DNA of 64,000 nt from Solirubrobacter pauli. Its GTDB lineage: Bacteria > Actinomycetota > Thermoleophilia > Solirubrobacterales > Solirubrobacteraceae. Position 1 is the first letter of the stretch. Each line of letters starts with the position of its first letter. The notes beneath the pieces were generated by a model, which did not search any database, had not been told where the DNA came from, and worked only from the letters and a program-made list of their open reading frames with translations. Location: the NCBI RefSeq assembly GCF_003633755.1, contig NZ_RBIL01000001.1:1163426-1227425 (forward strand), written 5' to 3'. Positions 14,358 through 48,838 of this stretch are shown piece after piece. The translations under genes were made by a program, and so were the position numbers.

Positions 14358-14642
14358 GTGGAGCGGCATCCATGGGCATGTTCCGCTCCGACGCCGCACG
14401 CCCCTCCGGCCGTCACCCGATCCCGCATGCCCCCACCGCTCGCCCACGCCTTCCTGGCCCTGGCCGACGACCCCGAGCCGGTCGACCAGCGCACGGTCCC
14501 CCGCGTCTTCGCGGCCGCCGTCGCCACCGTCGTCCTCGCGGTCGGCGCCCCGCTCGGCTTCCTCGTCGTGAACCCGGCCGACCACACGATCGGCCCGCTC
14601 GCCGGGTCGAAGTTCTCCCTCGCGCTGGACGACTCGGACTGA
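14358..14642 (+). CDS. small single-pass membrane protein coupled to a protein kinase gene
   Basis: A frame of up to 94 codons from GTG 14358. An internal ATG at 14427 would give 71 residues and may be the true start, and neither has a good ribosome site. After a charged N-terminal region it has one hydrophobic helix (AAAVATVVLAVGAPLGFLVV, near 51-70) and a short polar tail. Its stop overlaps the kinase start (TGATG at 14640-14644), so the two are probably translated together. No family is recognised. A membrane partner of the soluble kinase is a reasonable inference. Confidence 0.6.
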   Translation: MERHPWACSAPTPHAPPAVTRSRMPPPLAHAFLALADDPEPVDQRTVPRVFAAAVATVVLAVGAPLGFLVVNPADHTIGPLAGSKFSLALDDSD

Positions 14643-15607
14643 TGGACTCCACGGTCGCGTACACGCCGCCGTTCGTGCATGAGCAGCCGCGTGAGCGACC
14701 CACCTGGGGCTTCGCCGAGGGCGACGAGCTCGCTCCGGGCCGCACCGTGCTGCGCCGGATCGGCGGCGGACGCCGCTACGAGGCGCTGCTGGTGTGGGAC
14801 GAGCACCGGCTCGCCGTGCTCGTGGCCAAGGTGCTGCGTCCCGACCACGCGCAGGACCCGATCGCGTTGCACGACCTGCGCCGCGAGGCGACGCTGCTCG
14901 AGCGGCTCGCGCACCCGGTCGTCGTGCGTGGCTTCGGCGCCCACCTCGAGGAGGCAGGCGCGGGACGTTCTCGCCCCCTGGGCGATGACTCCCCGCCGAA
15001 CGAGCCCGCAGGGCGAGGCTCGGCCCGCTTCCCCCACCTCGTGCTCGAGCACCTGGACGGCCCGACGCTCGACGAGCTGCTCGCCCAGGGCGGTCCGCTC
15101 GCGATCGAGCAGTTGCTGCCGCTCGGCCTGCACGTCGCGAGCGCGCTCCACTACCTCGCGGGCGAGGGCATCGTGCACCTCGACGTCAAGCCGAGCAACA
15201 TCGTCATGGGCGGCCCGCCGCGGCTGATCGACCTCAGCGTCGCGCGCACGCTCCACCACGCCGCGGCGCTGCGCTCGCCGATCGGCACGGACGCGTTCAT
15301 GGCTCCCGAGCAGTGCGAGCCCGACGGCCGCCTCGGCCCGCCGGCCGACGTCTTCGGCCTCGCGGCGACGCTCTACACGGCCCTGACCGGTGCGCGGCCG
15401 TTCCCGCCCTGCGAGGACCGCTGGCCACAGCTCACGGCCCTGCCGGCGCCGCTGCCCCGCCGCACGCCGAAGGCGCTGGCCGCGATCCTCACGCGCGGCA
15501 TGGCACAGGACCCCGCCTCGCGCCCGACCGCGCGGGACTTCGCGGTGGCGCTCGAGCCGCTCGTCGCCGCGCTGCCGCGCCGGATGACGCTCGGCCGCCG
15601 CGGCTAG
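14642..15607 (+). CDS. Ser/Thr protein kinase, soluble
   Basis: A protein of 321 aa, almost only a kinase fold. The Lys of strand 3 is in VLVAKVL near 62, the catalytic loop is GIVHLDVKPSN near 180, the metal loop reads IDLSVAR instead of the usual DFG, and the APE motif is MAPEQ. The glycine loop (IGGGRRYEA) is also degenerate. The metal-binding Asp is kept, so activity is possible. A hydrophilic insertion (about residues 104-126) separates strands 4 and 5. There is no membrane helix or extracellular sensor, but the start overlaps an upstream membrane-protein gene. The stop codon lies inside the left arm of the palindrome at 15602-15771. Confidence 0.9.
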   Translation: MDSTVAYTPPFVHEQPRERPTWGFAEGDELAPGRTVLRRIGGGRRYEALLVWDEHRLAVLVAKVLRPDHAQDPIALHDLRREATLLERLAHPVVVRGFGAHLEEAGAGRSRPLGDDSPPNEPAGRGSARFPHLVLEHLDGPTLDELLAQGGPLAIEQLLPLGLHVASALHYLAGEGIVHLDVKPSNIVMGGPPRLIDLSVARTLHHAAALRSPIGTDAFMAPEQCEPDGRLGPPADVFGLAATLYTALTGARPFPPCEDRWPQLTALPAPLPRRTPKALAAILTRGMAQDPASRPTARDFAVALEPLVAALPRRMTLGRRG

Positions 15608-15771
15608 TACCGGTGAAGGCCGGTACGCGCGATCGCTGGGGGTCGCCGGCGCCGGCTGGGACCGCCTGGTGACCGGAAGTGTGCCGGGGCACATGACCGG
15701 TCGCCGGGTGGGTCCAGGCGGTGATCGGCGGCCGCCAGAATCGTGCGGACCGGCGTGAGCCGGTACTAGCC
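15602..15771. repeat. 170-bp imperfect palindrome with perfect 12-bp ends (MITE-like)
   Basis: Ends GGCTAGTACCGG (15602-15613) and CCGGTACTAGCC (15760-15771) are exact inverted copies. The centre GTGCCGGGGCAC (15681-15692) falls precisely at the midpoint, so the arms have equal length. By hand alignment without gaps about two thirds of the 85 positions pair. The left end holds the kinase stop codon and the right end directly precedes the GT39-like gene. No transposase is encoded. It looks like a decayed miniature inverted-repeat element, and a large hairpin with a regulatory role is the other option. Confidence 0.75.
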
Positions 15772-17039
15772 TCTCCCGCATCCTCCGCCTCGCACCACGA
15801 ACCGCGCTCGCCGCCGGCACGCTCCTCGGCGCCATCACCCTGGTCCTGCTCCACGAGTGGCGCGGCCTCGAGTACTGGAACTACAGCGAGGGCGTGTACG
15901 CGCTGACGTCCCGCCTGTGGCTCGACGGCGGCGACCTGTACGGGCACATCGTCGTCGCCCAGCCGCCGTGGCAGTTCTTCTACGGCGCCGGCGCGCTGGC
16001 GATCCACGACTCGATGACGTGGCTGCGGTTCACCGTCGGCCTCGCGCAGCTCGGCGCGGGCGTCCTGGCCGCGGTCGCGGTCCGGCGGCTCACGGACAAC
16101 CCGCTCGCGATCCTCGCCGCGCCCGCGCTCACGCTGCTCACCCCGTGGGCGGTGCGCGAGCACGGCGCGCTGACGCCCGAGCTGCTGGCGCCGCCGGTGC
16201 TGCTCGGCGCGGCGCTGCTCGCGTCGAAGCCGAAGACCGCGCTGGCGGCGGGAGCGCTCGCGTCGACGGCGGTGTTCCTGAAGTGGCCTTACGCGCTGCC
16301 GGTCGCGGCGCTGGTCTTCTTCAGCGCCGCGCCCAAGAAGGCGATCGTGGGGGCGGCGGTCGCCGGCGTCGTCCAGGCCGCGGTCTTCACCGCGATCTTC
16401 GGCTGGGGCCTGTGGGACGACAGCGTGATCGCCCAGATGGCCTCCGAGCGGCGCGGGTTCGACATCCTGCGCGGGGTCTGGGGCCAGGCGTTCTGGAGCC
16501 TGGTCGGCCTGGTCGCGCTCGCCGCCCTCGCCTGGCTCCACCGTGAGCGGGCGAAGGACCAGGCGCTGCTGAAGGTCCTCGCCGCGCTGGCCGTGGGCAT
16601 GCTGTTGACGCTCGCGTCGAACACCAAGGACGGCACCGGGCTGAACGTGATCGTCCCGATCGAGGCCGCGCTCGTGCCACTCGCGCTCGCGGGCGCCGCG
16701 CTGCACGGGCGCCGCCTCGTCCCCGCGCTGCTGCTGGCGTTCACGCTCGTGCAGTCGCTGTCGCTGATCACCACGCCGCGCACGGCGACGCCGTTCCTCT
16801 ACCCCACGTCCGAGCGCGGCGCCTGGGGCATCGCGGGCGACGAGCGGGCGGTCGACCAAGGCCTCGCCCAGGCTGCGGCCTGCCCGGCGGATGTGGCCTA
16901 CTCGGGCCCGCCGTACCTGGCGTTCCTCGCCGACCGCCCGATGCCGGACGGCCAGCCCGACCAGTTCCTCCCGCTGCACTCGAAGCACCTCGCCGACGTC
17001 GGCGACGCGATCAACCGCGTCACCGCGCGCTGCCCGTAG
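15759..17039 (+). CDS. GT39-like polytopic membrane glycosyltransferase, start codon not identifiable
   Basis: The frame is open from 15759 (just after an in-frame TGA at 15756-15758) to TAG at 17039. The protein has about ten membrane helices and the layout of dolichyl/undecaprenyl-linked sugar transferases: helix 1, then an acidic residue in YWNYSEGVYA, then QPPWQFFYG. The first usable start (GTG 15894) would remove helix 1 and that acidic residue. No ATG, GTG or TTG exists upstream in frame, so either a rare start is used (for example ATC 15780 or a CTG) or the original start was lost. The right end of the palindrome lies at 15771. It would use a lipid-linked sugar at the outer membrane face. 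The acceptor is unknown. The gene ends 1 nt before the convergent histidine kinase. Confidence 0.75.
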   Translation, partial: AGTSLSRILRLAPRTALAAGTLLGAITLVLLHEWRGLEYWNYSEGVYALTSRLWLDGGDLYGHIVVAQPPWQFFYGAGALAIHDSMTWLRFTVGLAQLGAGVLAAVAVRRLTDNPLAILAAPALTLLTPWAVREHGALTPELLAPPVLLGAALLASKPKTALAAGALASTAVFLKWPYALPVAALVFFSAAPKKAIVGAAVAGVVQAAVFTAIFGWGLWDDSVIAQMASERRGFDILRGVWGQAFWSLVGLVALAALAWLHRERAKDQALLKVLAALAVGMLLTLASNTKDGTGLNVIVPIEAALVPLALAGAALHGRRLVPALLLAFTLVQSLSLITTPRTATPFLYPTSERGAWGIAGDERAVDQGLAQAAACPADVAYSGPPYLAFLADRPMPDGQPDQFLPLHSKHLADVGDAINRVTARCP

Positions 17040-42468: not shown

Positions 42469-42508
42469 AGAAAGATAAAGGGGTCAGACCCCTTTAGGTT
42501 GCTTTAGG
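42464..42508. repeat. 45-bp REP-like palindrome, copy 1, between convergent genes
   Basis: Core AAAGGGG-TCAGA-CCCCTTT (42477-42483 and 42489-42495) with a weaker outer arm CCTGAAG.../...GCTTTAGG. It covers the stop codons of the response regulator (plus) and of the kinase (minus). Almost the same 45-bp unit occurs at 48794-48838. Each side ends in T-rich sequence on its strand, so it may serve as a two-way terminator. Confidence 0.75.
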
Positions 42509-48798: not shown

Positions 48799-48838
48799 AG
48801 CGAGTTAAAGGGGTCAGCCCCCTTTAGGTCGCTTTAGG
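48794..48838. repeat. 45-bp REP-like palindrome, copy 2, between convergent genes
   Basis: Nested arms: outer CCTAAAGCGA (48794-48803) with TCGCTTTAGG (48829-48838), inner AAAGGGG (48807-48813) with CCCCTTT (48819-48825). It is the better preserved of two copies. The left outer arm contains the pepA TAA stop, and the right outer arm contains the TAA of the chemoreceptor gene. A two-way terminator effect is plausible. Confidence 0.8.

What the first reader, a model, noticed from the sequence alone, without database searches (positions are those of the whole stretch)
15602..15771. 170-bp palindrome with perfect 12-bp ends between a kinase gene and a glycosyltransferase gene
The ends GGCTAGTACCGG and CCGGTACTAGCC are exact inverted copies and the symmetric centre GTGCCGGGGCAC is precisely at the midpoint (15686.5). 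By hand, without gaps, about two thirds of the positions between the arms pair. Such symmetry across 170 bp is far beyond chance. It encodes nothing, and the kinase stop codon lies inside one end. It resembles a decayed MITE, perhaps inserted at a TA or CTAG target, or a large structural hairpin.
Basis: partly seen in the sequence, partly recalled or inferred. Interest (0 to 1): 0.65.

Follow-up and report, generated by a model that had tools for sequence, protein, structure and literature searches.

The report
IS630-type mobile hairpin at stop codons
The 170-base palindrome is one copy of a small non-coding jumping element of soil bacteria (Solirubrobacter and relatives), apparently moved by IS630-type transposases into the letters CTAG, often at gene stop codons; unusually, evolution keeps its hairpin fold on one strand only.

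Summary
In detail: this is the most symmetric 170-bp stretch of the window, RNA fold z = -9.7. A covariance model of the element matches 26 of 146 family genomes.

It is mobile. Solirubrobacter phytolaccae has the same kinase gene ending CGGCTAGCC without it; here 162 bp are inserted and CTAG stands on both sides. Twelve of 16 tested sites lack a full element in some relative. A neighbour's stop codon lies at an element end in 67 of 86 copies, in 45 as TAG of CTAG.

Likely parents were found on re-checking: IS630-type insertion sequences in G070, G072 and G011 with CTAG-bounded ends resembling those of element subfamilies. None was found in G000 itself.

It is not decayed. The same strand folds better in 94 of 94 matches; Watson-Crick pairs change to G-U 121 times against 25 to A-C, and compensated double changes number 96 against 22 expected. 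Orientation to genes is not sense-biased, so this constraint probably serves the element itself; its use is unknown. Verdict: a new IS630-type MITE family with an unexplained one-strand structural constraint.

The parts
   Evidence: copies
15604..15607 (.). left CTAG (one copy of the target); contains the kinase stop TAG 15605-15607
   Evidence: the empty site in G003 has a single CTAG
15608..15765 (+). sequence between the two CTAG copies (158 bp; net insertion 162 bp counting one CTAG)
   Evidence: covariance-model match 15604-15769, + strand 156.8 bits, minus strand 79.7 bits
15766..15769 (.). right CTAG (second copy of the target)
15681..15692 (+). apical stem GTGCC/GGCAC with 2-base centre
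15715..15730 (+). highly conserved core stretch CAGGCGGTGATCGGCG
   Evidence: alignment A2; exact in the own genome only at the two full copies
14639..15607 (+). protein kinase gene (coding by codon model; start codon not determined), ends on the left CTAG
15780..17039 (+). downstream gene without a Pfam match; frame open from 15759, no ATG/GTG/TTG until 15894; ATC at 15780 lines up by eye with GTG of the G005 orthologue

Best explanation
A miniature inverted-repeat element (MITE) of IS630-type (Tc1/mariner-like) insertion sequences. Shown: it inserts at CTAG, leaves CTAG on both sides (equally readable as duplication of the TA core), is dispersed in several copies per genome in many Solirubrobacteraceae, and often lies on TAG stop codons, where the repeated CTAG restores the stop. 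Shown: in three relatives IS630-type elements end in CTAG-bounded sequences that resemble the ends of particular element subfamilies. Inferred: such transposases move the element in trans; in the window's own genome no such gene was found, so its copies may be old or moved by something not recognised. Shown as an evolutionary fact: the hairpin fold of one defined strand is kept by compensatory and G-U-preserving changes. Inferred: that fold serves the element itself, as RNA or single-stranded DNA, rather than the neighbouring gene, since copies lie in either orientation. The stop-codon habit is inferred to follow from the CTAG target (rare elsewhere) plus loss of insertions that break genes.
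For: Copies: own genome 2 full and 1 degenerate; 26 of 146 family genomes at E<=1e-3; 24 of 232 order genomes at E<=1e-4, 23 of them in the family. Recent movement: L076 and L077 identical at different loci of G011; full copies 93-98% identical in G072. Empty sites: exact for the window copy in G003; bare CTAG/TTAG at the L057 site in G000, G001, G004 and at the L181 site in G004; 12 of 16 sites. Parents: five near-identical IS (99.5-100%) in G070, each from CTAG to CTAG, 1244-1248 bp, begin CTAGTGGACCCATCCGCAAGTTCG, against CTAGTGGCCCATCCCGCAAGTCCG at the 3' end of L079; the G072 locus L286 ends CTAGTGGGTCGTCCAGGA, identical over 18 nt to L191; the G011 locus L288 (1152 bp, CTAG to CTAG) begins CTAGTGCTCCGTCTCG against CTAGTGGTCCGTCTCG of L163. 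Start-anchored scores: L286 15 and G070 ends 13 and 11; among 351 YTAR-following stretches from 55 loci taken as element-free plus the window (mean 4.3) the top one is the L286 IS end itself, and one other reaches 11. Target: 67 of 86 copies, 45 as TAG of CTAG. Structure: 26 of 66 pairs with changes on both sides, 130 cells against 43.5 shuffled; same strand better in 94 of 94; 42 disjoint pairs: G-U 121, A-C 25, compensated 96 against mean 22, maximum 36.
Against: No IS630-type (PF13358) match in G000, G003, G071 or G023, which carry copies. Of the other IS630-type loci, L284, L285 and L291 showed no such ends; the left end of the L286 element was not found; the L288 right end scores only 7. 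A looser unanchored comparison of the G070 ends did not stand out: random window 30-mers reached 15 and 18 against 13 and 11. Only PF13358 was searched among DDE families. What the fold does is not shown. In one search, 98 one-sided and 14 two-sided changes also broke pairs. Stop-codon association may need nothing beyond CTAG (5 of 12 CTAG in the window are called TAG stops). Copies share ancestry, so 94 of 94 is not 94 independent trials.
Confidence: 0.8

Rival explanations
1. Movement depends on the whole folded strand (RNA or ssDNA), not only on the terminal repeats recognised by an IS630-type transposase.
For: One-strand G-U retention and compensation; narrow length, 69 of 94 matches 166-168 bp; conserved core.
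Against: Similar CTAG-bounded ends on IS630-type elements and the TA/CTAG target explain movement without the fold; short derivatives keep both ends and one 33-bp form occurs at three loci, at two of them with one end frayed.
Confidence: 0.12
2. A fixed regulatory hairpin or terminator belonging to the kinase operon.
For: Very stable hairpin directly after the kinase stop codon; fold kept at some orthologous sites.
Against: Absent at the same kinase junction in G003; copies beside unrelated genes; both neighbours antisense in 36 of 86, sense in 21.
Confidence: 0.02
3. A REP/REPIN-type element moved by a RAYT (Y1, HUH) transposase.
For: One-strand fold; Y1 genes exist in G000, G001, G003, G005.
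Against: No PF01797 match in G011, G071, G072, G023, which carry copies; palindromes seen in the loci of two Y1 genes are different.
Confidence: 0.02
4. The symmetry is maintained mechanically: template switching copies one arm onto the other, giving apparent compensation without selection.
For: Palindromes are prone to it (general knowledge); at one orthologous site 6 pairs changed on both sides and none on one side only (L020/L060); internal-deletion derivatives are common.
Against: Arm correction makes Watson-Crick palindromes; it does not favour G-U over A-C on one strand (121:25; 35 pairs against 2, 5 ties), seen in A-U pairs too (68:28).
Confidence: 0.08

Closest known systems
RUP of Streptococcus pneumoniae (107 bp, proposed to be moved by IS630-Spn1), PMC2229807
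   Same: TA target, terminal inverted repeats, non-coding, ends like those of an IS630-type element
   Different: Other phylum and sequence; about 70% G+C; hairpin fold kept on one strand, which was not tested for RUP
ERIC/IRU (127 bp) and YPAL/RU-2 (about 168 bp) of enterobacteria, PMC2229807
   Same: Small non-coding palindromic mobile repeats between genes with long RNA stem-loops; YPAL has the same length and known empty/filled sites
   Different: No Rfam match for this element; YPAL lacks TA ends and has 3-26 bp duplications
Correia/NEMIS elements of Neisseria, PMC2229807
   Same: Stem-loop transcript, TA ends, size class, size variants
   Different: Different host and sequence; IHF site not tested here
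REP/REPIN with RAYT (PMC3733652, abstract and outline seen)
   Same: Palindromic, intergenic, near gene 3' ends, proposed RNA role
   Different: REPs are 20-40 bp with GTAG/CGTC tags; no RAYT match in four copy-bearing genomes

Membership tests
IS630-type MITE | multiple dispersed non-coding copies under 200 bp | tested here: met
   no gene called inside it
IS630-type MITE | terminal inverted repeats | tested here: met
   12 bp exact here; of 74 matches 166-171 bp long, 36 start and 31 end with CTAG
IS630-type MITE | TA (CTAG) target repeated on both sides, with empty site | tested here: met
   exact at the window, L057 and L181 sites
IS630-type MITE | ends shared with an IS630-type element | tested here: met
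   resemblance for subfamilies seen in G011, G069 and G072, with IS630-type elements of G070, G072 and G011; not shown for the window's own subfamily or genome
IS630-type MITE | movement by that transposase | not testable with these tools
   needs a transposition assay
REP/REPIN-RAYT | RAYT (Y1_Tnp) gene in genomes that carry the repeats | tested here: not met
   no match in G011, G071, G072, G023; matches in G000, G001, G003, G005
REP/REPIN-RAYT | 20-40 bp unit with GTAG or CGTC foot | tested here: not met
   usual unit 166-168 bp with CTAG ends
Known structured RNA family (Rfam 15) | score over a gathering threshold | tested here: not met
   window stretch: lowest E 0.093, all below threshold; four other loci with copies: none
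Conserved structured nucleic acid | covariation beyond shuffles and slid controls | tested here: met
   0 of 500 shuffles reach any of five measures; slid partners 33-47% paired against 95.8%

The most novel reading that the evidence does not exclude
A transposase-moved MITE whose one strand is at the same time a selected single-strand hairpin (RNA or ssDNA) that serves the element itself, whatever the direction of the genes beside it: a DNA element with a second, strand-specific life.
Probability: 0.35. Interest if true: 0.7.

Novelty: new member of a known kind. Interest (0 to 1): 0.45.

Why it matters
The review read here (PMC2229807, 2007) says that movement of bacterial MITEs by transposases had no experimental support. 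This family offers empty and filled sites, candidate IS630-type parents with similar ends, a four-letter target and a measurable one-strand constraint, so it can separate 'only the ends matter' from 'the folded strand matters too'. It also shows how a repeat can enter operons, even a ribosomal-protein operon, without breaking genes: the stop codon is its target and is restored on insertion.

Tried and rejected
Rfam: nothing over threshold. Plasmids, blastn: no match. Viral contigs, one exact pattern of the broader subfamily: none. End-only BLAST matches were fetched and read: deleted or truncated hairpins, as far as I could see; the scan for paired ends at 300-4000 bp is too loose to be evidence. 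RAYT: rejected. Operon terminator: rejected. Weak model matches elsewhere in the window (19.2 bits and less) were not followed. First reading was wrong: I took the IS630-type loci to have different ends because my repeat finder needed 10-base exact seeds; the end positions printed in the same call bracket the G070 genes, which the re-check showed. The odds for an IS630-type origin were raised, and the novelty class and interest lowered, for that reason.

Literature: seven searches listed no paper that I recognised as describing this element; only the held PMC library is covered. Papers: PMC2229807, parts 1 and 2 of 3; PMC2170065, passages (with the reference-list title of Tenzen and Ohtsubo 1991 on IS630 and CTAG); PMC3733652, abstract and outline; all others, listings only.

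Rows left out: one search used 90 of 94 matches (three under 150 nt, one identical), 84 of them in 42 pairs; one search used 86 of 94 (short flanks); one search used 92 distinct rows. One search counts each pair in both directions, so its p-values are too small. The 94 include weak matches such as L145 and L200 that may not be true copies. Control loci were chosen by me as element-free without a separate test; a wider control set still held element relatives (48 of 634 reached the left-end score, those I looked at being such relatives), which is why one search was run.

Full report
Observation. The stretch is real and exceptional: 56 of 85 opposed positions Watson-Crick plus 10 G-T without gaps, the maximum over all 170-bp stretches of the window (mean 25.3, sd 5.2), RNA fold z = -9.7. 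The fold is one hairpin, essentially from CTAG to CTAG (15604-15769). The kinase stop TAG is part of the left CTAG.

Other copies. G000 has a second full copy (80% identical) at C1:1338164-1338331 and a degenerate one on C2. A covariance model built from 24 copies matches 26 of 146 genomes of the family at E<=1e-3. Over the order it matches 24 of 232 at E<=1e-4, 23 in the family and one (G210) in a sister family. Row counts there include both strands of one copy. G011 (Ca. Siliceabacter maunaloa), G071 and G072 are rich in copies. Of 94 matches taken further, 69 are 166-168 bp long, although stems differ much between subfamilies (output partly cut).

Movement. In G003 the orthologous kinase gene ends CGCCGCGGCTAGCCTCAACC; the window reads CGCCGCGG-CTAG-[element]-CTAG-CCTCTCCC. 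The net insertion is 162 bp; because CTAG is a palindrome the duplication may be called CTAG or TA. Fifteen further filled sites were sought with joined flanks in six Solirubrobacter genomes and read out with the window site. For 12 of the 16 sites at least one relative lacks a full-length element; for the other four (L024, L054, L182, L183) no locus held, other than the filled one, had both flanks. A bare CTAG or TTAG is seen at the L057 site in three species and at the L181 site in G004. Two sites look like remnants (L025 and L063 sites in G001), and the L058 site in G000 reads CTAGCTAG, which could be an excision footprint. L076 and L077 in G011 are identical at different loci. At the CcmE / cytochrome-c-assembly junction, copies of different subfamilies lie in opposite orientations in G011/G071 and G107/G114, so the same junction was probably hit more than once.

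Target and context. With a codon-usage gene caller, 86 of 94 matches had enough flank; in 76 a gene's 3' end faces the element, in 67 a stop codon lies within -6..+24 nt of an element end, and in 45 of these it is the TAG of a CTAG. CTAG is strongly depleted in the window (12 against 164 expected from base composition); 5 of the 12 are called TAG stops and 1 lies inside a called gene (two of the 12 are the element's own ends). CTAG targeting plus loss of harmful insertions may therefore explain the habit. Orientation to neighbours: both genes antisense 36, both sense 21, convergent 19, divergent 9, one unresolved (36 against 21, p = 0.06). In G023 three copies sit in a ribosomal-protein operon, before L16, between L14 and L24 and between L24 and L5; the L14/L24 copy runs from the L14 stop (CTAG) to the L24 start (CTAATG).

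Parents. PF13358 (IS630-type DDE) matches lie in G011, G072, G069 and G070, none in G000, G003, G071 or G023. Five loci of G070 hold near-identical insertion sequences of 1244-1248 bp that run from CTAG to CTAG in different surroundings; they begin CTAGTGGACCCATCCGCAAGTTCG and, from the other side, CTAGTGGACGTGTCCGTTAGTTCG. The first resembles the 3' end of the L079 element, CTAGTGGCCCATCCCGCAAGTCCG. In the one examined fully (L287) helix-turn-helix and DDE_3 matches lie in separate frames. In G072 the end behind the transposase gene (L286) is identical to the L191 element end for 18 nt, CTAGTGGGTCGTCCAGGA. In G011 the L288 element (1152 bp, CTAG to CTAG) begins CTAGTGCTCCGTCTCG against CTAGTGGTCCGTCTCG of L163. 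In a start-anchored comparison with 351 YTAR-following stretches from 55 loci taken as element-free and the window, the L286 end scores highest (15), the G070 ends reach 13 and 11, and only one other control reaches 11. Against this: an unanchored comparison of the G070 ends did not exceed random window pieces, the right end of L288 scores only 7, the left end of L286 was not found, paired end motifs at 900-1500 bp occur in 6 of 198 other held loci, and L284, L285 and L291 showed no such ends. That IS630 prefers TA in CTAG is known to me from recall and from a title in the reference list of PMC2170065.

Structure. In the 24-copy alignment 95.8% of cells pair, 26 of 66 pairs have changes on both sides, and no shuffle of 500 reaches any of the five measures. 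The constraint is on one strand: the + strand folds better in 94 of 94 matches, by 32.5 kcal/mol on average, with roughly 10 against 2 G-U pairs. In 42 disjoint nearest pairs of copies, with the fold taken from one member only, Watson-Crick pairs became G-U 121 times and A-C 25 times (35 pairs with more G-U, 2 with more A-C, 5 ties); compensated double changes were 96 against a mean of 22 and a maximum of 36 in 200 shuffles; 98 one-sided and 14 two-sided changes broke pairs in other ways. The excess holds for G-C pairs (C>T 146, G>A 23) and A-U pairs (A>G 68, T>C 28), while unpaired positions show a mild bias (63:43 and 64:48, both directions counted). At orthologous sites the fold of one copy projected on another gave compensated / one-sided kept / A-C / broken pairs of 6/0/0/3 (L020-L060, 5 gaps), 3/4/1/3 (L020-L062), 2/8/2/3 (L189-L199) and 0/1/0/2 (L137-L142).

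Reading. That this is a mobile element is shown. That IS630-type transposases move it is the best-supported inference, strongest for subfamilies in G011, G069 and G072 and not shown for the window's own subfamily. The strand-specific fold is an evolutionary fact whose use is unknown; because neighbours are not preferentially sense, a role for the element itself fits better than one in host mRNA. PMC2229807 (parts 1 and 2 read) describes bacterial MITEs of about 100-200 bp with TA ends, target duplications and long stem-loop transcripts, RUP with a proposed IS630 parent among them. This family meets those features, hence 'new member of a known kind'; the one-strand constraint has not been tested here for the older families and may set it apart.

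Noticed in passing
15759-15894: The gene downstream of the element has no ATG/GTG/TTG start before 15894 although conserved protein sequence begins by about 15801; an ATC at 15780 lines up by eye with an ATC in G003 and GTG in G005, so an unusual AUC start is possible.
   Followed up: partly
42476-42496 and 48806-48826: Two copies of a different short palindrome (TAAAGGGGTCAGACCCCTTTA and a variant); similar ones lie in the loci of two Y1 transposase genes (L264, L266) and at an empty site in G000 (L298), suggesting REP/RAYT repeats in Solirubrobacter.
   Followed up: partly
L090, L101, L103, L227, L230, L271-L276, L281-L283 (G011): Many very short hairpins (about 28-75 bp) with the same ends; three loci carry the same mini-hairpin core, so short forms may also move.
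   Followed up: partly
L189:98-265, 1786-1953, 2264-2431: Three copies inside one ribosomal-protein operon of G023, all antisense to it.
   Followed up: yes
L287, L289, L290, L292, L293 (G070): Five near-identical IS630-type elements from CTAG to CTAG; in L287 the transposase is read in separate frames, so a frameshift may be needed.
   Followed up: partly
L254 (G002), site of L056: At the orthologous site a different CTAG-flanked palindrome (GAGCCCGTTGAACTT...AAGTTCAACAGGGTC) is present, possibly another family with the same target.
   Followed up: no
whole window: CTAG occurs 12 times where about 164 are expected from base composition.
   Followed up: partly
L161, L165 (G072), L179 (G071): Copies of 219-222 bp with an extra insert near the hairpin tip, apparently a size variant that has itself spread.
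   Followed up: no
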